From Laburnicola sp. R22_1 (taxonomy: Eukaryota > Ascomycota > Dothideomycetes > Pleosporales > Didymosphaeriaceae): a stretch of DNA of 64,000 nucleotides. Each line of letters opens with the position of its first letter. Positions within the stretch are counted from its first letter, which is position 1. Below the pieces are notes generated by a model, which made no database searches, was not told the origin of the DNA, and worked only from the letters and a program-made list of their open reading frames with translations. This document shows, in pieces, positions 985 to 11,449 of this stretch. Both the position numbers and the translations under genes were made by a program. The stretch lies in contig JACONQ010000006.1 in the NCBI GenBank assembly GCA_014281115.1, forward strand, positions 682,001-746,000, in the 5' to 3' direction.

Positions 985-3322
985 CTACGGCTATAAAAAT
1001 AAGAGAAAGTGTAAATCTACTACCTAAAATATAGCCTAAAATTCTAAGTACAGCCACTTACTACTATAATAAGAGTCTATTAGCTCTATATACTTTGTAA
1101 GCACTAGATAAAGTGCTTAAAAATTAGTTTAGGTAGTATTTTTATTAGTATAAGCCTGCTTAAGTATAAGTATAGATAGCTAATTATTAATCCAATTAAA
1201 GTAAAATTTATACCTATTGCTATTAGGTATATCTCTTAAAAAGAGATTAAGTAACAAGGTAGAATAAGCAAGCATTTAAAGTAAATCCTAGAGACTATAT
1301 TAGATACCTAATTAGTTATACAGTATTAAATCTCTATAAAACATAAATTCTAATACTTAAATAGATAATTACTACGCGTAATATTATATTTAATAAAATA
1401 TTATTCTATAAGGGCAAAGCTAAGTAAGGCATATTCTATAAAGAAGTAGTAAAGATTGTTAAAGTTCTATATAAGAGGGAGATTAATAATCTAAAAAAGA
1501 GTTAGCAGATATCCTTAATCTTATTACTATACTAAATAAGTAAGCAAGTACTAAGTAAGTAGAAAATAGTGCTCTTATTTAGTAATTTAAGAGCTTAGCT
1601 AGCTAGACTAGTAATTAAGTAGCTAATAGGACTAATATATAGGTAGTAAGCTTAGCTAGTAAGTAGCTAAGAATTTGTATAGTTTAAAGCAAGTATATAA
1701 AGCTTATAACTCCTAAATCGACGCTAAAGCTAGGCAATCTAGGGTATAATAAGTTAAGAAATTATAGAGACACTAATAGCTAATAAAGTATATGCTAATC
1801 TAGGCAAACTAGTCTATTAGATTCTAAAGAGTATTCTCTTAAAAGTCTAGAGACTAAGAGCTCTATAGCTATCTTTTAATTTAGCCCTAAAAGCTTAACT
1901 GTGCTAGAGAAAGGAAATAACCTACTAGTAAGCTAAAGGTAAAAATAAGATTAAGCACCTATAAGATTAAGTAGAAAACTCTAAGATATTAATACAAATA
2001 CGCGCATTTAGAACTATCTACCTCTTTAATAATAAAATAATTATAATTAGTATAATAATACTACTAATTAGCAAAAAGGTAGGTTATTTATATATACACT
2101 AATTACTAGTTATATAATAAACGTTTTTTAAGATAACTTTCTATTTATATATATTCTAGAAGCATAGAGAGTTTAGAATAAGTACTAAAAGTATACTATA
2201 ATAAATTCTATAGTTACTATAGTAATACTTAAAAGATACTAAAGGTATTGCTTTTTACTTATCTATATAAAGATAAGCTGATAAAGCTACCTACCTTATA
2301 GAAACACCTCACTAAATATCTACTTAGAAAGCTCTTTAAGCAAGCCTTTAATATTAAGATTAGTATACTTAAAAAGAAAGGAACCTTAATAATAATCTAT
2401 TAAGTATAAGCTACTAGACAACTACTTCTATTAAAGTAGATTTAAACTTATAAGTTTAATTAGAATAGGTACTTTCTAAAGTATAAGGCTTAAATTATTA
2501 TAAGAAATAATCTCTAGGATAAGAACTTGCTATAGTTAACCTACGCAGCAACACTTATAGTATAGTTGTTTAGAACTATAATAGTAATTATAGTAGAATA
2601 TAATCTAGAAATTATTTAATATAATATAGTAGGAGTATTTTTAAACACTTATATTATAGCTAAAAATCTAGTTATCTATAAGCTTCTAAATAGGTTTAAG
2701 CAATATAGCAAGTGCGTGTTTCTTAATTAAGCTCTATATACATTAAGAGACTCGCCACTACTATAGCATAAGGAGTTTTTAAAATTACTAAGATTTATAG
2801 GACTTACTATAGTAAAAAAGAGCCTTGTTTATTTATAAGTAAAGATTGTAGAATCTTAGTACTCTTCTATATTAATAATATACTTCTAGTCTTTAATGTA
2901 GCTTATAAAGTAGAGGTATAAAAGCTGTAGAGCTAGGTTAAAATAAAATATAAGATTAAAAACTATAGACTAGTTAAATAGTTTCTAGATGTCTAAGTAA
3001 TCTAAGATTATAAGAATAGAATAATCACACTTATTTTTAATACTTACATTAATAAGATTGTAAAGAAGTTTAATCTTAAAGATAGTAGAAGCTTCTCTAT
3101 AATACCTCTTTTATTAGAAGAGCTTATAAAGAATACTAGAAAAGCGACTAAGTAATAGATTAAAAGCTACTAGAAATATATTAGCTTAGTAGTATACACA
3201 GCAATTATACTTAGTCCTAATAATATATTTACTATTTTAAAACTTTTACACTTTCTAATAACTTTAAGTAAATAATACTTTATTATAGTTAATTAAGTAA
3301 TTATATATTTTTAGAAAACGCG
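985..3322 (+). pseudogene. Ty1/copia polyprotein relic, 5' portion (through reverse transcriptase)
   Basis: Reading through stops gives a Pseudoviridae-type reverse transcriptase on the plus strand. A block beginning TYAATL (about 2540) leads into an RALYGLR-like block seen as ALYTLRDSPLL (about 2735), then the catalytic YVDD box as YINNILLVF (2867-2893). Both aspartates of that box have become Asn, which RIP explains. The thumb region and the start of the RNase H linker follow to about 3320. Upstream (985-2400) must hold gag, protease and integrase, but I could not place their motifs confidently. The frame is interrupted at 3323-3330 by the hAT target duplication and resumes at 11450. Many TAG and TAA stops make it non-functional. 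Confidence 0.8.
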
Positions 3323-3330
3323 CTAGTAAT
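3323..3330. repeat. Target-site duplication CTAGTAAT (left, hAT)
   Basis: Identical 8-mer at 11442-11449 on the other side of the element; it delimits 3331-11441 exactly. Confidence 0.85.
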
Positions 3331-3597
3331 TAGGCTGGCAAATGGGTATAGGTTAGGTTAAGGTTTGGTTCCTTTACATAAGACCTAATCCTAACCTAAC
3401 CTCTACCTATAGATTTTACGCTAGTAATAGGTATAGGTTAGATTAGAGTTGCATAGACTAGATTATATTAGGTCTAACTAATTAAATCTTTTATTAGCTA
3501 TATGTAATTTTTATAGTAAATTACTATAAAGAATACCCTTATTATTATAGTAGTAATTATTACGTTTACTTATTATAGTAAAAGTATAGCTTTAGTA

Positions 3598-3992
3598 TTA
3601 AATATATATATTAAACCTAACTAAGCGTCTAGCTATTCTAAACTTAACTAATCGCCTTACTATTTATCTAGTGTCTATATACTTCTTATAATACCTATTT
3701 ACTAGCTATATATTCTTAGCCTTTATAGTAACCTATTATATATAAATAGTGTTAATATTAGTATTTATTTTATAGTAAGAGTAAAGTGTTATAAAGAATT
3801 ACCTTTAAATATTCTAATTACAAAAGCCTCTATTACCTCCTAGAGAGCAGCTAGCGCAATAAACTAGAAGCGCCGGTTTTTCCTATGATTATTTTATACT
3901 ATTTCCTTAATATAGCGGTAGAATAGCATTTTTCTAATAAGAGGCTTAATACTCTTTTAGTACTTTTTAATTTTCTTAAGCGTAATAGCTAT
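3598..3992 (-). pseudogene. Histone H3 / CENP-A-like histone-fold relic inside the hAT
   Basis: Read on the minus strand through stops, this has the H3 fold in order. An alpha-N block KIKKY*KSI (about 3977-3950) matches REIRRYQKS. LIRKMLF (3941-3921) matches LIRKLPF, and YIKEIV matches LVREIA. A loop follows, then RRF*FIALAAL*EVIEAF (about 3875-3822), which matches RFQSSAVMALQEACEAY. FK-DTN matches FEDTN, and VTIKAKNI*LVNR (3732-3694) matches VTIMPKDIQLARR. A 38-nt GT-starting interruption (3765-3802) lies exactly between FE and DTN with phase restored, so it may be a short intron whose 3' AG has decayed. Loop 1 is one residue longer than canonical H3 and the frame runs about 28 codons past the usual C-terminus. 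The N-terminal tail upstream (about 3993-4110) is not recognisable. Nearly all departures are RIP-type. Whether it was H3, CENP-A or a distant variant is open. Confidence 0.75.
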
Positions 3993-4109
3993 ATAATATT
4001 AGAATATATATATAATAAATAGCTGTAATAATAGTATACTACCTAGCTTCTAGTAGTGCTTTCTTTTAGCGCAGTAGGTAGTATTTTATAAGATGCCTTT
4101 TACGTAGCT

Positions 4110-4403
4110 TTAGTAGCTAGTAGCTTTTTCTTTATTACTTAAATTCTATTAGTAACTATTTTAGTGTATCTAGATAGTCTAGTATATGCTATTATCTTAG
4201 AAATTAAGGTTATATAGTAGTTAAGGCTATAGAGTATTAAAAAAGTAGCTAGAAGGGTAGTAAGGTAAAGTAGCTAAGTAGGTAGTAAAGTAAGTAAAGA
4301 AAATACGCTAGTGTTATTAGCGCCTTGCTAATATGCACAGGCCCCTATAGCTACTTTTTCTAATAATAATAATATTTTTATTATTTCTATAATATTAACT
4401 ATA
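4110..4403. other. hAT interior between H3-like relic and pogo insertion
   Basis: AT-rich, with stops in all frames. It may include the N-terminal tail of the H3-like relic on the minus strand, but no motif fixes a start. Confidence 0.3.
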
Positions 4404-4412
4404 ACGTGGTTT

Positions 4413-4446
4413 ACCAGCGAGTGACCCACACTAGTAAGCGCGTCAC
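4413..4446. repeat. 17-bp tandem TIR boxes, left end of 4404 element
   Basis: Units 4413-4429 and 4430-4446 start ACCAGCGAG and ACTAGTAAG, with about 10 of 17 positions equal and C/T accounting for several differences. The mirror pair lies near 6222-6258. Likely transposase-binding sites by analogy with other families here. Confidence 0.6.
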
Positions 4447-4472
4447 CTTTGCCAAGACCCCACCAAACCATT

Positions 4473-6170
4473 TTATTCATTATTAGACTGCGTCGCAACA
4501 CTACTTAAAAATATATACTAAGTTAATGCATCTAATTTAGATTCTTCCTCTTTAACTCCCTAGCAGGTTTGTGCATTGTGTCCAGGTTGCCTGCAGATAC
4601 CACAACGCCGTTAAGTTAATAGCCCTATTGTAGCGCGACTAGTACCTAATAACTATTTACCCTTCTTCTATCCACTAGCATCCTTAGAAGTGGCTAGCTA
4701 AGATCCCTCTACTACTATAAGTAATCCCTAATGCTGGATATACCTCCTTTTACGCGATTTTCGTCTTATAGTCTCCTTAATTGTCTTGCAAAGGCCTGCA
4801 ATTTTATCTAACACTAGTACCTAACTATGCATTACACTTAGAGCGCCTTTTTTAAGCTTCTTAAGCACCTGTATAGTTGAAGTTAGTGATAAATTAAAGT
4901 AATCTCTAATTCTCTTGCGAACTAGTGTTGATTACGCCTTAAATTCGCGTAGGTTACTTAGTATTTTAGACTCCTAGATAGTAGGCTCTTTAATGGGCAG
5001 ACTAGGTGTACGGATGCGGATGTTAAAGTGCTGTAACATCTCCTCTGGATTCAATAGGACTAGCCCAGCACCGCGAAAACCACCCTTAATTGTCTCTGCA
5101 GAGAAAACCTTCAAAAACGCGATTTTAAAGGCTAGGAGGAACTTAATCTTTATAATGTGGGTTATTAGCCAACGCGCCAAGCCCAAGATCTCAGCACCAT
5201 ATGCCTTCTTTAGCGGAGAGAAACAGTCCACATCTAATAGCTATAGTAGGTATAATAAATATAGCGGCATATAGAGAGTAATAATCTTATGTTCCTTATA
5301 GTAATCCTAGAACTTAATTAAGTTATAGCTCTTATAGCCGTTAATAACTAGCAGCTAATAGGTTCCTTTAGCGCGTCTCTTTGTATGCGCGTTAAAGTGT
5401 TTTAACCACGCGATACCAAGCTTATTATTTGTCTAGCTGTTCTCGCTAACAGCGATTATCTAATTGCCAGGAATTAACGCGTCTTTGTACTAGGTAGAGA
5501 TGTGACGCTTACTAGCGTAGATAATAAAGGGAGAGATTGCCTATTTAGTAGCGCAGATACTCTGGATTACTGTAATCTACTAGCGGTCGCCTGGCTGTAT
5601 TAATTTGGGTTTCGCACGCCTCTCTAATGCTATAACCACAAGTTAAGATCCTATAACCCCTATTAGGAAGCCTAATTCATTAAAGTTGTAGGTATCCTTA
5701 TTTATAATACTATACTTAACTTTAATGCCCTCTATAAGCTTAAACTACGCGTTTATAACCTTAGGATCTTCCTATTATGCTCTCTAATTATTGTATGACT
5801 AAGACTAACGCGTTTTAACTTTACGTCTATGCTTAATAAACCTATCTGTCTAGTTAATACTAATAGGTGGCTTTCTTCTCTATAAACGTAGTGAATCGGC
5901 CATTGTGTGTATTATAAGCTTCGTAGGAGAAAACCCACGCGTGTCTAGCTCGATTATACAATTAACAAGCGCCTGCTTCTTAAGAAGAGTAAAATTCTTT
6001 AATTTAGGTGAGTTATCGCGTCGTGCAGTCGTTCTGTTGCGTCTTTAATTAAGCGTTCTACGATTAACGTTATACAGCCCTACTGCTGCTCGCTCTGTAA
6101 AATTTAGGTCTTGTTTAATAGCTCTAATAGTAATAAGTAACCAAGCTTTATTAGATAGCTTAGAAGACAT
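4473..6170 (-). pseudogene. pogo/Fot1-like transposase relic (566 codons)
   Basis: The start Met at 6170 opens a psq-type helix-turn-helix (AIKQDLNFTERAAVGLYNV) followed by a CENP-B/Tc5-type HTH (IIELDTRGFSP). The catalytic DDE core is in the middle. The C-terminal part includes GGFRGAGLVLLNPEE (about 5090-5050) and a CCHC zinc knuckle, C-x2-C-x4-GHNAQTC (about 4590-4562). The stop is at 4473-4475. Length is an exact codon multiple, so there is no net frameshift, but numerous TAG/TAA codons interrupt it. The family normally cuts and pastes at TA in the nucleus using a DD35D triad. Only the segment 4974-5231 is open for more than 80 codons. Confidence 0.85.
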
Positions 6171-6269
6171 AGTAGGTGGTTGTATTATGATGATATTATT
6201 AGTAATAGTGGGGTCTTGGCAAAGGTGGCGCGCTTACTAGTGTAGGTCACTCGCTAGTAAACCACGTTA

Positions 6270-7620
6270 GTTATTATATACTATTATTGCACTCTATACT
6301 ATAGTGTCTATTAAGAAAGAGTCTTCTAATATTCTAAAGGGCCTTCTAAGTAGTAGCCTATAGATTCTAGCAAATTTTAAGTATAATAAGTAGGAGAGTC
6401 TTACTAAGATACCTAGTAATTATTACCTTTTATTATACTATATACTAACATAGATAGGGCTTTAAGTTAAGAAATAAAGAGGTTAGCACTATCTTTTATA
6501 TTATAAATAAGGTAGCTTTTAGAGAGGTTATTCTACTAACTATAAAATGCTATTTAAAGGTATACTTAGTAATAACGCTTATACTATTATATTAAGGTCT
6601 TACAATACACTTTATAGTAAAGAAGAAAAGGTACTAAACTCTACTAAATTAGCTAATTAAGCTATATAATATTAGCTTAAAAAGAAGTTTTATAATAATA
6701 AAGACTACTAATTACTTTTTAAAGTGTAAAAGTATTAATAGCTTACGCAGGAAAAAAAGAACTTATATAGTCTTACTTTAAGAATTAAAAAAGTAGTATA
6801 TTATTATATACTATTATTATATATTAGTTAATTAATAAGTAGTAGGCAACTAGTTAAAGGCGAAACTAATAGCTATATATAAAAAGTAGGATAAAATTAA
6901 GAATAAAGTTAATCTAAGGGCCTACTAAGCAGCCTTAACTAAGCGTAGAATTATTACTAGTAAAAAGAAAGGCCATTCTATACTATAAAGTTGTATAGGT
7001 AAATAAATCTTTAGTTATAGTAGTATATAGAAGAAGTTCTTATACAATATATATAGAATAGGCCTAAGAAAGCTTAAGGCTAATAGCTTTAAAAGTAAAG
7101 CTAATAAGAAAAAGTAAAAGGACTTTTATAATAGCGTAGGTAATATAGATCTAACTACTAAGAAGCTAATAATAATTACTAATAAGAAATAGTTATAAGT
7201 TTATTATACTTATTTATTATATACCTTTACTAGTAATTATTAGTTACTATAAGTCTAGTCAACCTACTAACATTATTAACTATAGTAAAAATAGGATATT
7301 TAATAGTAATAAGGTATATATTAAGGGAACAATAATAAAAAGTATAAAGAGAAAATTAAGAATAATAGGGAGGAGCTTAAGGCTTATTTCTAGAAGCTGC
7401 TAGATAGGTATAACTCTAATATTATAGATAAGGATATAGACTTTAAAGGTTTCTTAGACTTTAGAGGCTTAGGTGCTAAGAAGGTTTTAGTTAATAAGGG
7501 GGTTTTAGATAATAAGGAGGTTTTAGATAATAAGGAGGTTTTAGATAATAAGGAGGTTTTAGATAATAAGGAGGACTTAGGTACTAAGGGAATTTTAGAT
7601 AATAATTAGTGTATAGAATA
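6270..7620 (+). pseudogene. Unrecognised ghost reading frame in hAT, with coding minisatellite
   Basis: Plus-strand translation through stops yields lysine-rich stretches in shifting frames, for example LKAKLIAIYKK near 6860 and KEKIKNNREELKAYF near 7345. It ends in LLDRYNSNIIDKDIDF and a repeated hexapeptide VLDNKE. I cannot assign a domain. Stops are almost all TAG/TAA, consistent with decayed Gln codons, so it may be part of the hAT transposase or a cargo gene. Confidence 0.3.
7482..7610 (+). repeat. 18-bp tandem repeat (about 5-6 units)
   Basis: Units of GGTTTTAGATAATAAGGA recur head to tail with slightly divergent outer units. Eighteen bases equals six codons and the plus frame reads VLDNKE repeatedly, so it behaves like a coding minisatellite. 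Confidence 0.8.
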
Positions 7621-7792
7621 AGATAAGCTAATGTTGTAATTTAGCTATAGCTAATTATTATAGCTAATAATTATATACTAGTTGCTAAGGATACTACCTA
7701 TAGTAGTATAGTAATAAGCTAATTACTATCTAAAACTAACTCTGTAATAAAGGGCTATATACTAATTTAGATATTATAGTGCCTTCTATTTT

Positions 7793-7860
7793 ACTTCTCT
7801 CTATGTATGGTACGGACTCGATCGTAGTTAGAATCTCCACACGACGAAGATCTTCAATAC
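7793..7860 (-). repeat. SINE-like repeat, partial copy 1
   Basis: Reverse complement matches the repeat at 43988-44091, 10118-10255 and 46860-46995 (shared GATTCTAAC...GTCC core). This copy has GATCGAGTCC, a perfect fit to the pol III B-box consensus GWTCRANNC, and is the least mutated at that site. Confidence 0.5.
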
Positions 7861-9739
7861 TAGTTTAGATTTAAAACTAACTTATTATTTGCACGCTATG
7901 TGCTACACGCTATTTTTAGCTAACCTTAATATTAGTTAAATACTACTATAGTTAATATTATAAAATTTAGTTTGTCCTATTCTCTTCTTAAACTACTATT
8001 CTCTTAAATAACTATTTAACTAGTTATTATATTTTTATTATACTAATATCCTTAAGTGCTATATTAAGTGCTACACTTACCTTAGAAATTAATATACAGT
8101 ACTATATTAATAAACTAGTTGCCCTACTACTAGATACTCTCTTTAAATATAGAATTCTAGCCCTATAGGCTAATAGGTTAGGAAGTAAAATAATTTGTCT
8201 TATTTAATATCCTTTTTTAGACTTTTAAAAGTTAAAGATAAGGAAAAAGATATTTGCTACATAAAACGCGTAGTAGTCTAATACTTAATAGGCTACAGAT
8301 AAGCAAACCTATAACCTACACTAGAACTCTTATCTTTATATAGGTATTATCTAGACTATATTCTAAGAGGACGTAGAGTACCCTCTAGTTATTTATATAT
8401 ATTCTATCTTAACTATAGCTATATACTATAACACCTAAGCGTTAACTCTACTAATATCTAGCTAATTAGTACTAAGCACCTTATTAACTATATAAGGTTC
8501 TAAGCATATATATAATAAAATAAGCCTATTTATAAAAGGACTTTTACTCCTTAGTATAAAAAAGTAGATAGCTATTTTATATCCTATATACCTTTTATAA
8601 GTATTTAAAACTAAACCTATATAGATAGTAATTAATAATAACTAGTTCTTTTAAATAGTAGAGTAACTATTCTTTTAACACTTTTTTATTTTCTTAGGCC
8701 TAATGCTGCGATAACTAGCTACTATAGGTTCTGCTAGATATTCTTAAACAAATTTAACGCTGCTAAGACAGCTATTCTTAGTAATATTAGTAGGGTAACT
8801 AAACTCTTTATCTTACTTAATACATAGTCTGCGGCTAATTACCTTAGCTTCTTAGCTATTAATAGTTATTATATTAATAATACTTAGTAGCTTAAAGAGA
8901 CGCTGCTTAACTTTATACTAATATATAGCAGCCATACTAGAGTATTAATAGTATTAGAGATACTATAGATTCTTAAGTATATAGAAACTATATAAAAGCT
9001 CCTAGTAGTTATATATAATAATGCTAGTAATAATAGCACCTTAGCTTAGAGCGTCTAGCCTAAACTATTAGAGGAGAATATTATCTAGAACTAAAAAAGA
9101 AACACAATCCTATATTTTGCTTATATTATTAACTTTATAGTTTACGATATTATCTATTACTTTAAGTTATTAGCGCCTATTAATCTTAACTCTAGAGAGA
9201 TGCTATAGCAGTAATATATAAATAAAATCTAGGCGCAGATATTTATTCTAAATTCTCTTTGCAAAGTATATTAGCTATAATTATAGAAAGTTATTATAGA
9301 AAGTTATTATAGAAAGTTATTATAGAAAGTTATTATAGAAAGTTATTATAAACTAACTAGCGCGCAGTATTATGCTATTTGCATTATAATTAACTAGTTA
9401 CTATAGTAATTTAAGTAATTTCTTATAATATAGAGCAATATACTGCTAAAGAAGCAATTGTTTATAATTTAAGATATCTAAATAAGATAGAGCTCTACGC
9501 ATAAAATATGTAAGCGCGCACTAAATCTTTAGATAAATATTATTATATAGCTAGAGAAGAAGATTATAATAAAGATAACTAGGAGATTAAATACTATTAC
9601 TTATAGTAATACTACAAAGATAGACTTTAAAGAGTTTAAGAAACTTTAACTATTAGCCCTAGAATAGTTATATCCTAAGTTAATTATCTCTACACTCTAA
9701 AAGTTTAAGAAGGCTATAAACTTCCTAAGTAAGACCTAG
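7861..9739. other. hAT interior, no recognisable gene
   Basis: AT-rich and heavily mutated on both strands. Long stop-rich stretches resemble decayed coding sequence, but no motif is identifiable. It contains the 13-bp tandem repeat listed separately. Confidence 0.4.
9282..9352. repeat. 13-bp tandem repeat, about 5 units
   Basis: TATAGAAAGTTAT repeated head to tail, almost without variation. The regularity against a mutated background suggests a recent slippage expansion. Confidence 0.85.
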
Positions 9740-9893
9740 GAGGGGCCGATTTGCACGTGCTAACGAACAGTTCCCAGCTCCCTAACCTATCTCTAAGCTG
9801 CTTTACCTTTTTAATGCGTTTTTAGCACACCCACAGCTTTCCCTTATAGCGTTGTACCGTATACTAAAGGGTCTGCGATGTTTTTCTTTCTAA
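9740..9893 (-). repeat. 154-bp terminal fragment of the 1.3-kb repeat family (copy E)
   Basis: It reads GAGGGGCCGATTTGC to TTTTTCTTTCTA and matches only the TAGGAAGAG end (about 150 bp) of the larger copies. A direct repeat AGTAAGACCTAG flanks it (9728-9739 and 9894-9905), so it inserted as a unit. It is less RIP-mutated than the long copies, keeping CACACCCACAG. Confidence 0.75.
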
Positions 9894-9905
9894 AGTAAGA
9901 CCTAG

Positions 9906-11330
9906 AAATCTTAGGTCCTATATATTTAGCTTATATATAACTAGCTCTTTAATTTCTTAGATAAGATAAATAATAAGCTTATTAAAAAGTTAAATAATAT
10001 TAGATAGCTAGAAGCTATATAGGCTATAGCTAAGATAGGATAAAAGAAGTTACGCAAGTATTACTTAAGAATAGGTAGGAAAAAAGGTTTCTTATTTAAC
10101 TATTAAAGATTTTTATTATGTGGAGATTCTAACTAAGGTAAAGTCCGCACTATACATAGAGAAGAGTAAAATAGGAAGCACTATAATCTAGTATCTAGCA
10201 CATAGTAGTAGTAATAAAATATATACAAAATAATAATAATTTTGTTGTTAACGTTCTGTACAACAGCATTAACAATAGCAGTTAATAGATAGTCTGCTGT
10301 CTAGCATAACTAAGTCACATGTTATCTCCTAACTAGTTGACTATTAGAGAGCCGTAGTAGACTCTTATTTAACTATATAATAATATTAGATCCTTTACAA
10401 AAGCTTATAGCGTATAAAGTATTATATTTATAGCTATTTATTATAGTTACATGCTAATAGTTATATAGACTAAGATATAGAAGACCTAGGACAAGTATAT
10501 ATACTACTAATAGTTCCTAGAGTACCTTAATTACTATAATAGCCTAGTAGCTAGAGATCCTACTTTAGTTTTAAAAACTAACCTAAGATAGTTATAAGAT
10601 AGTAAATAGTTTTAAAAGCCTTCTTTACTACCTAGTTTATAGTTTAGTAGCCTATTTACCTCTAGCTAAAGTTTAGCTATACTAGATATTAATTATAACT
10701 TAGGCCTAACTTAGATAAAAGAAGAAATATATCTAAGTACTTCTATAGTTAAAAAGAGTAATAGGTTTAATGTGCTAGTATAGTAGAAAGTTTATTAAAT
10801 ATCTTACTCTAATTTATATAAATTATAAAGAATATTCTAGTAGTGTAGATTTTATAGGTAGGTGTTAAGCGCGACTTTAATACTAGTAGAGATATAAATA
10901 GAGATTAAAGGCATAATTTTACTGCTTAAATAATTTAAAAGTTATAATAGTTAAGTTTATAATACCTAATAAGCAATATATAAAGTTATTAAATTCTAAT
11001 ATAAGAGAGAATAATTTAGGGACATAGCACTATTAAATAAGGGCGATAATTTATATAAGCTACTAGCTAATAAAGAGACTATTAAAACTATATCACGTTC
11101 TAAGGTTTTAGATAGCAAGCTACTAACGTCTTTCTACTAGGGGTAGCTACTATAGCGTTAGCGATAATAAGATATAATAAATATACGTGTTAATAGAAAA
11201 ATAGTGTTAATTTTACTTTTGCTTAGATCTCTTTTCTTATATACCTTTAGAGAGTAACTAAAGTTACTAATTTTATTACTATTAATTTTATATAATATAA
11301 GTTATATAACTCTAATAGATACTTTAATTT
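9906..11330. other. hAT interior, 3' part
   Basis: Heavily mutated AT-rich sequence containing a SINE-like copy at about 10118-10255. The segment around 10240-10380 is also found at 46980-47260, showing a wider repeat. No gene recognised. Confidence 0.4.
10118..10255 (+). repeat. SINE-like repeat, copy 2
   Basis: GTGGAGATTCTAACTAAGGTAAAG and downstream AGCACATAGTAGTAGTAA match the copy at 46860-46995. Both end in an A/T-rich ATAATAATAATTTT tail. The B-box-like segment is mutated here. Confidence 0.55.
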
Positions 11331-11331
11331 A

Positions 11332-11441
11332 ACCTATACCTAGAAGTCTATACAACCTAACCTAACCTATACCTAGGGTCTATGCGACCCCAACCTAACC
11401 CTATACCTAAGCTAGGTACCCCGAACCTATTTACTAGCCTA
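11332..11441. repeat. hAT right subterminal region with CCTAACC repeats
   Basis: Repeated AACCTATACCTAG and CCTAACC blocks mirror GGTTAGG blocks at 3350-3440 in inverted orientation. These are normal binding-site-like subterminal repeats of hAT elements, not a telomere. Confidence 0.65.
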
Positions 11442-11449
11442 CTAGTAAT

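What the first reader, a model, noticed from the sequence alone, without database searches (positions are those of the whole stretch)
3598..3992. A decayed histone H3/CENP-A-like gene carried inside a hAT-type element
The minus strand contains, in the right order and spacing, KIKKY*KS, LIRKMLF, YIKEIV, RRF*, ALAAL*E, EAF, FK|DTN and VTIKAKNI*L, the landmarks of the H3 histone fold from alpha-N to alpha-3. Differences are mostly RIP-type. A 38-nt GT-starting interruption falls in phase between FE and DTN. Loop 1 is one residue longer than canonical H3 and there is a C-terminal extension, so this is not a simple copy of the canonical gene. A mobile element carrying a histone variant, possibly a centromeric type, would be unexpected cargo.
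Basis: partly seen in the sequence, partly recalled or inferred. Interest (0 to 1): 0.87.

Follow-up and report, generated by a model that had tools for sequence, protein, structure and literature searches.

The report
Dead transposon carrying a histone H3
A fungal "jumping gene" of the hAT type, now dead in every copy that was read, once carried its own unusual version of the DNA-packaging protein histone H3; jumping genes with an H3 have been reported in a few other fungi, but this one shows apparent introns and an altered tail, which suggests a long-term working part rather than a fresh accident.

Summary
On the minus strand, window 4192-3664, lies a RIP-decayed gene of 145 codons in three apparent exons coding a histone H3-like protein: H3-type N-tail, histone fold, loop 1 one residue longer, longer C-terminus. 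It sits at the left end of a hAT element (3331-11441; 8-bp duplication ctagtaat, matching ends, hAT dimerisation domain near the right end). 95 decayed histone loci were counted in this genome, by inference a Pleosporales fungus; 32 of 32 copies read have 6-11 stops. In the fold, 7 of 7 majority-stop columns fall where host H3 has Gln or Arg (p = 5e-6), as RIP of a once open H3 frame predicts. It is nearer to H3 than to the host's CENP-A and fits neither; a centromeric type is not supported. The kind is in print: H3L in a 5.6-kb hAT of Pyrenophora (PMC3538342) and RIPed H3 retrocopies in hATs of Mycosphaerellaceae (PMC6710886). Added here: two intron-like segments where the host H3 has none, arginine for K4, no ARKS motif at K9, and an excess of subfamily differences in the histone gene. 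I read it as long-held, once working cargo that probably altered chromatin; that function is inferred.

The parts
3331..11441 (.). whole hAT element with later insertions inside it (copy L070, without large insertions, is 5.9 kb)
   Evidence: Ends TAGGCTGGCAAATGGGT / reverse of ...ACCTATTTACTAGCCTA, 14 of 18 terminal bases match; many other copies stop near the same left (3324-3331) and right (about 11442) points
3323..3330 (.). target-site duplication, left (ctagtaat)
   Evidence: copy L070 has its own 8-bp duplication CCTACTTA; 2 of 2 copies whose both sides were looked at show one
11442..11449 (.). target-site duplication, right (ctagtaat)
3664..4192 (-). decayed histone H3-like gene, 145 codons plus stop, three apparent exons
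   Evidence: codon table over 32 copies; coordinates; Pfam
4043..4192 (-). exon 1: H3-like N-tail
3989..4042 (-). intron-like segment 1 (54 nt); first two bases GT in 22, GC in 5, AT in 5 of 32 copies; last three TAG in 28 of 32
   Evidence: no RNA data
3803..3988 (-). exon 2: alpha-N to end of alpha-2 of the histone fold
3765..3802 (-). intron-like segment 2 (38 nt here, 54 nt in most copies); first two bases GT in 19, AT in 11, CT in 1, GC in 1 of 32; last three TAG in 14, TAA in 12, missing in 4, other in 2
   Evidence: no RNA data
3664..3764 (-). exon 3: loop 2, alpha-3 and C-terminal extension, stop codon
   Evidence: stop TAA in 30, TGA in 2 of 32 copies
6426..6840 (+). possible central ORF of unknown function (longest runs without majority stops: 70 and 59 codons in one frame); limits approximate
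   Evidence: no match over a Pfam cut-off
10363..11110 (+). decayed C-terminal part of a hAT transposase; limits approximate, by alignment with L070
   Evidence: PF05699 in 8 of 8 read-through copies scanned (chosen from 32 rows), best E 3.4e-6; single-copy hit in L070 E=0.041, below cut-off; the window's own copy aligns poorly (row L039, 53%)
4404..6267 (-). less decayed DDE_1 (pogo/Tc1-type) element inserted in the hAT, TA duplication, 62-nt inverted ends
   Evidence: PF03184 E=1.1e-12

Best explanation
SHOWN: this is a RIP-type decayed copy of a multi-copy hAT DNA transposon of a fungus (by inference Pleosporales) that carries, near its left end and opposite to the transposase, an H3-like gene complete from tail to stop. 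INFERRED, about 0.7: the histone is an old, integral cargo gene of the element family and coded a working protein before RIP, not a fresh capture of the host H3. INFERRED, about 0.3: the protein paired with H4 and entered nucleosomes, where a tail without K4 and without the ARKS motif around K9 made chromatin that the host's H3K9-methylation silencing could not mark normally, so that the element stayed expressible or mobile for longer. The confidence given is for identity plus integral cargo.
For: Fold: PF00125 in 14 of 14 copies scanned (14 of 32 chosen), best E 4.6e-20; best PDB relatives are H3.3 and H3.1 chains, best E 6e-29. Open frame once: 7 of 7 majority-stop columns in the fold lie on host-H3 Gln/Arg (18 of 89 columns are such), p=4.6e-6. 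Complete gene: tail start aligned with MARTK, common stop, intron-like segments. Part of the element: 95 decayed histone loci; 25 of 40 matches to the element's right part have a histone match within 25 kb on the expected side. Not the host gene: host H3 introns, read by eye from its translations, are elsewhere; mean identity to host H3 over readable fold positions 47.6%. Tail: residue 4 is Arg in 31 of 32 copies, a change RIP cannot make from Lys; residue 9 is Lys in 0 of 32; the residues answering K23 and K27 are Lys in 31 and 32 of 32. Subfamily differences: 10 of 13 shared transversion columns found over 2861 columns lie in the 438 histone coding columns, p=1.2e-6.
Against: No intact copy, transcript or protein was seen; 32 of 32 copies read have 6 to 11 internal stops. 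No copy has an ATG start (ATA in 31 of 31 readable). A Lys sits one residue beyond the K9 column (29 of 32), so a register shift could keep a substitute site. Splice-site dinucleotides vary: the second segment ends in TAG in only 14 of 32 copies. The excess of differences is not separable from whole-gene exchange: exon versus intron p=0.70, and 0 synonymous of 10 has P=0.18 by chance; one of the 10 columns lies in a run of A where the alignment is unsure. 15 of 40 right-part matches had no histone match within 25 kb. Part of the 52% divergence is RIP itself.
Confidence: 0.72

Rival explanations
1. Passenger: a transduplicated H3 gene (from this or another fungus) amplified by the hAT and never useful, as Dhillon et al. 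describe for Mycosphaerellaceae.
For: hATs with H3 are known; in P. fijiensis all extra copies are RIP-dead, and here 81 of 88 matches have stops, the other 7 being host genes. No expression evidence here.
Against: Complete gene with intron-like segments rather than an intronless retrocopy; intron places differ from the host H3; majority stops in the fold only at Gln/Arg places, so the frame was kept until RIP; a tail change that RIP cannot make.
Confidence: 0.25
2. A centromeric H3 (CENP-A) gene carried by the element.
For: 6 of 27 diagnostic columns favour CENP-A, among them Phe in place of Tyr in alpha-2 in 32 of 32 copies.
Against: H3-type tail; loop 1 two residues shorter than in the host CENP-A and without its Trp (Phe in 32 of 32); 40.1% identity to host CENP-A against 47.6% to host H3; 13 of 27 diagnostic columns favour H3; the 60 PDB hits shown are H3 types.
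Confidence: 0.03
3. Gene exchange (may hold together with the best explanation): subfamilies of the element differ in the histone because the gene was swapped with other H3-bearing elements, not because of selection.
For: Some variants occur in otherwise different haplotypes; intron 2 also carries one shared difference, and exon and intron rates do not differ.
Against: No second, clearly different H3-bearing family was met, though it was hardly sought: of 4 odd loci fetched, 4 match the same element at 79-86%.
Confidence: 0.35
4. Chance resemblance in AT-rich sequence.
For: None beyond low complexity.
Against: E=1.2e-7 for the window alone, 4.6e-20 for the best copy, stop placement p=4.6e-6.
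Confidence: 0.001

Closest known systems
H3L-carrying hAT of Pyrenophora tritici-repentis (Manning et al. 2013, PMC3538342)
   Same: hAT with dimerisation domain, central ORF of unknown function and an H3-like gene between the ends; about 5.6 kb (here 5.9 kb); H3L has tail insertions and matches neither H3 nor CenH3; Pleosporales host (seen: 12 found passages, and part 1 of 2 of the section on transduplication).
   Different: There 10 long and 16 short, nearly identical copies, 24 of 26 H3L genes full-length, with ESTs; here 95 counted decayed loci. H3L protein letters were not held, so orthology is untested; whether Ptr H3L has introns or these tail changes I did not see.
Histone H3 transduplication by hAT in Pseudocercospora fijiensis and five relatives (Dhillon et al. 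2019, PMC6710886)
   Same: hAT, 8-bp duplications, H3-like sequences, hundreds of RIP-killed copies, original gene intact (seen: abstract, Results, part 1 of 2 of the Discussion).
   Different: There 9.5-9.9 kb, one or two H3 copies per element, no introns (read as a retrocopy of the host transcript), dimerisation domain not found in that family; here 5.9 kb, one gene with two intron-like segments, dimerisation domain present.
Canonical fungal histone H3
   Same: Tail start, ATKAA.K region, histone fold, Gln/Arg positions.
   Different: K4 is Arg, no ARKS at K9, tail insertion, loop 1 plus one residue, C-terminus three residues longer than the host's, other introns.

Membership tests
hAT superfamily | 8-bp target-site duplication | tested here: met
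   2 of 2 copies looked at on both sides: window ctagtaat, L070 CCTACTTA
hAT superfamily | short terminal inverted repeats | tested here: met
   14 of 18 terminal bases match; the 3 mismatches in the first 17 are RIP-type transitions
hAT superfamily | transposase with hAT C-terminal dimerisation domain | tested here: met
   PF05699 in 8 of 8 copies scanned, chosen from 32 rows; best E 3.4e-6
hAT superfamily | catalytic DDE residues | not tested
Histone H3 | histone fold over Pfam cut-off | tested here: met
Histone H3 | conserved N-tail with K4 and ARKS at K9 | tested here: not met
   Arg at residue 4 in 31 of 32; no Lys at residue 9 in 32 of 32, a Lys one place on in 29; other tail motifs kept. 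So: H3-like, not canonical H3
CENP-A / CenH3 | longer loop 1 and Trp as in the host CENP-A (that these mark the family is recalled) | tested here: not met
   one residue longer than H3, two shorter than host CENP-A; Phe in 32 of 32
CENP-A / CenH3 | centromere localisation | not testable with these tools
   decayed copies, no cells
Pleosporales H3L-hAT (Manning 2013) | 5.6-kb hAT with full transposase, central ORF and H3L | tested here: inconclusive
   5.9 kb, histone and hAT domain shown; central ORF only suggested, full transposase not traced
Pleosporales H3L-hAT (Manning 2013) | sequence homology to Ptr H3L and its transposase | not testable with these tools
Mycosphaerellaceae H3-hAT (Dhillon 2019) | intronless retrocopy of the host H3 | tested here: not met
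   two intron-like segments

The most novel reading that the evidence does not exclude
Pleosporales hATs have for a long time carried their own evolving H3 variant as a chromatin-evasion factor: a mobile-element histone, unmarkable at K4 and K9, that diversifies faster than the rest of the element in conflict with host silencing.
Probability: 0.2. Interest if true: 0.85.

Novelty: new member of a known kind. Interest (0 to 1): 0.52.

Why it matters
If the histone is an integral cargo and not a repeated accident, a selfish element has its own nucleosome part, which would make it possible to ask directly how transposons resist heterochromatin in fungi. Even as a passenger it adds a Pleosporales lineage that looks distinct from Pyrenophora, with an apparently intron-bearing gene that argues against the retrocopy route described for Mycosphaerellaceae.

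Tried and rejected
CENP-A identity: rejected on tail, loop and diagnostic columns; the host CENP-A fold itself was checked against PDB (the hits shown are H3 chains too, so that check did not separate the two). Viral or prokaryotic relatives: profile A2 found none confirmed in viral contigs or genome contigs. Close relatives among 5.8 billion proteins: profile A1 gave 290 hits at 1e-10 of which 120 are listed, all with the Histone domain; the 12 that I read are canonical-like H3s. Profile A2, of rows without most H3-typical words, gave 4 hits; only one of them, P0003, was read, and it lacks this C-terminus. The word-based search can miss decayed or distant relatives. Pfam on single decayed frames of the middle and right parts gave nothing over a cut-off; alignments of copies were needed. 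A base-restoring consensus was not made. Structure prediction was not run: the spliced read-through is not letter-for-letter genome sequence.

Host: the nearest named relatives of one host protein are Paraconiothyrium brasiliense (91%) and Byssothecium circinans (89%), 120 of 896 hits listed; both are Pleosporales, suborder Massarineae, while Pyrenophora is in Pleosporineae. From this single protein I infer a Pleosporales host other than Pyrenophora and other than the Mycosphaerellaceae of PMC6710886; the species is not known.

Literature: eight searches of the held open-access library only. They brought two papers on H3 in hATs. Seen: PMC6710886 (abstract, Results, part 1 of Discussion), PMC3538342 (found passages and part 1 of one section), PMC4994206 (two reference-list passages only); others as listings.

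Full report
What is there. The minus strand of 4192-3664 holds a decayed gene. The same family is matched 88 times in the 64-Mb genome, 7 times without stops (host histone-fold genes) and 81 times with stops inside. A DNA search with 3300-4420 scored 40 of 263 candidates; besides the window itself it gave 39 main matches of 81-89% identity and shorter pieces. Merging both lists, starts less than 1.5 kb apart counted once, gives 95 loci; since candidates were capped, more may exist.

Gene anatomy. In 32 aligned copies (33 rows, one partial row dropped) the gene reads as 145 codons with a common stop (TAA 30, TGA 2), in three apparent exons. Exon 1 is an H3-like tail starting where MARTK starts, though the start codon reads ATA in 31 of 31 readable copies. 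Exon 2 runs from alpha-N through alpha-2. Exon 3 holds the DTN motif, alpha-3 and a C-terminus three residues longer than the host's. The two intervening segments are 54 nt long in most copies and, by eye, carry CTAAT before the 3' end. Segment 1 begins GT in 22, GC in 5, AT in 5 and ends TAG in 28 of 32; segment 2 begins GT in 19, AT in 11 and ends TAG in 14, TAA in 12. RIP can blur such sites, and there is no RNA evidence.

Decay. TA/AT and (CA+TG)/(AC+GT) are 1.82 and 0.27 in the left part of the element, 0.75 and 1.10 in 3.3 kb around the host H3 gene. All 32 copies read have 6 to 11 stops. In the fold, 7 columns are stops in at least half of the copies; all 7 lie where the host H3 has Gln or Arg, and 6 of the host's 7 Gln are among them. 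That is what RIP of a formerly open H3 frame gives, and it is hard to get by chance (p=4.6e-6).

H3 or CENP-A. The host's own H3 (L001) and CENP-A (L002) were read by eye from the genome. Readable fold positions match host H3 at 47.6% on average (39-52%) and host CENP-A at 40.1% (33-46%); the CENP-A loop was trimmed by two residues to fit. Of 27 columns in which the two differ, 13 favour H3, 6 CENP-A and 8 neither. The tail is H3-like. The protein fits neither group, as was said of Ptr H3L.

Tail. Residue 4 is Arg in 31 of 32 copies (Lys in one); RIP cannot make Arg from Lys. Residue 9 is never Lys; a Lys stands one place further in 29 of 32. The residues answering K23 and K27 are Lys in 31 and 32 of 32. 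Placing residues after about 12 depends on the alignment because of a tail insertion.

Element. The left end is 3331, the right end 11441, flanked by ctagtaat; copy L070, 5915 bp without large insertions, has its own duplication. A hAT dimerisation domain is found in 8 of 8 read-through copies scanned. 25 of 40 matches to the right part of the element have a histone match within 25 kb on the expected side, 20 of the 25 at 4.5-8.1 kb; 15 do not. A possible central ORF on the plus strand is suggested by two long runs without majority stops and has no match over a Pfam cut-off.

Differences between copies. Counting only transversion-type variants shared by at least three copies, the left part has 11 such columns of 1088, 10 of them in the histone exons; the middle has 1 of 783 and the right 1 of 990. 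A first count on the 32-copy table gave 11 of 438 coding and 1 of 403 other columns. Exons against everything else: p=1.2e-6. All 10 change the amino acid, but 0 silent of 10 is not unusual (P=0.18), exon against intron is not different (p=0.70), and one column is in a run of A. So the histone gene is the variable part of the stretches compared; whether by selection or exchange is open.

Known or new. A hAT with an H3-like gene is published at least twice: Ptr H3L and the Mycosphaerellaceae retrocopies. Architecture, length, inferred host order and the description of the protein put this element next to the Ptr family; homology by sequence could not be tested. I therefore file it as a new member of a known kind. 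Not seen in what I read of those papers: the intron-bearing gene, the K4 and K9 changes, and the concentration of subfamily differences in the cargo; also new is the RIP-dead multi-copy state in another Pleosporales genome.

Mechanism. Steps shown: hAT element, H3-like gene, former open frame, RIP-type death. Steps inferred: expression, pairing with H4, entry into chromatin, resistance to K9-based silencing. I put the last at about 0.3 and a useless passenger at about 0.25; a working cargo with another role takes much of the rest.

Noticed in passing
window 4404-6267: A much less decayed DDE_1 (pogo/Tc1-type) element with 62-nt inverted ends sits inside the hAT at a TA; PF03184 E=1.1e-12.
   Followed up: partly
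window 7773-7856: A short insert of about 85 nt interrupts the element here and similar pieces appear in several other loci, like a MITE.
   Followed up: no
G000, 150 scored matches of PF05699: Many open hAT C-terminal domains with equal scores (e.g. in 551-aa frames) lie in the genome, so other hAT families escaped RIP or arrived lately.
   Followed up: no
L070:4020-4160: A tandem array of a short unit (YYRKLL/KVIIES when translated) inside the element, longer in L070 than in the window (9280-9350).
   Followed up: no
window 7480-7600: Tandem units on the plus strand; in copy L070 they read as a repeated LDNKEV-like peptide.
   Followed up: no
L042:1500-1560: One copy's right end keeps C-rich terminal bases, so it looks less RIPed there than the other copies printed.
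   Followed up: no
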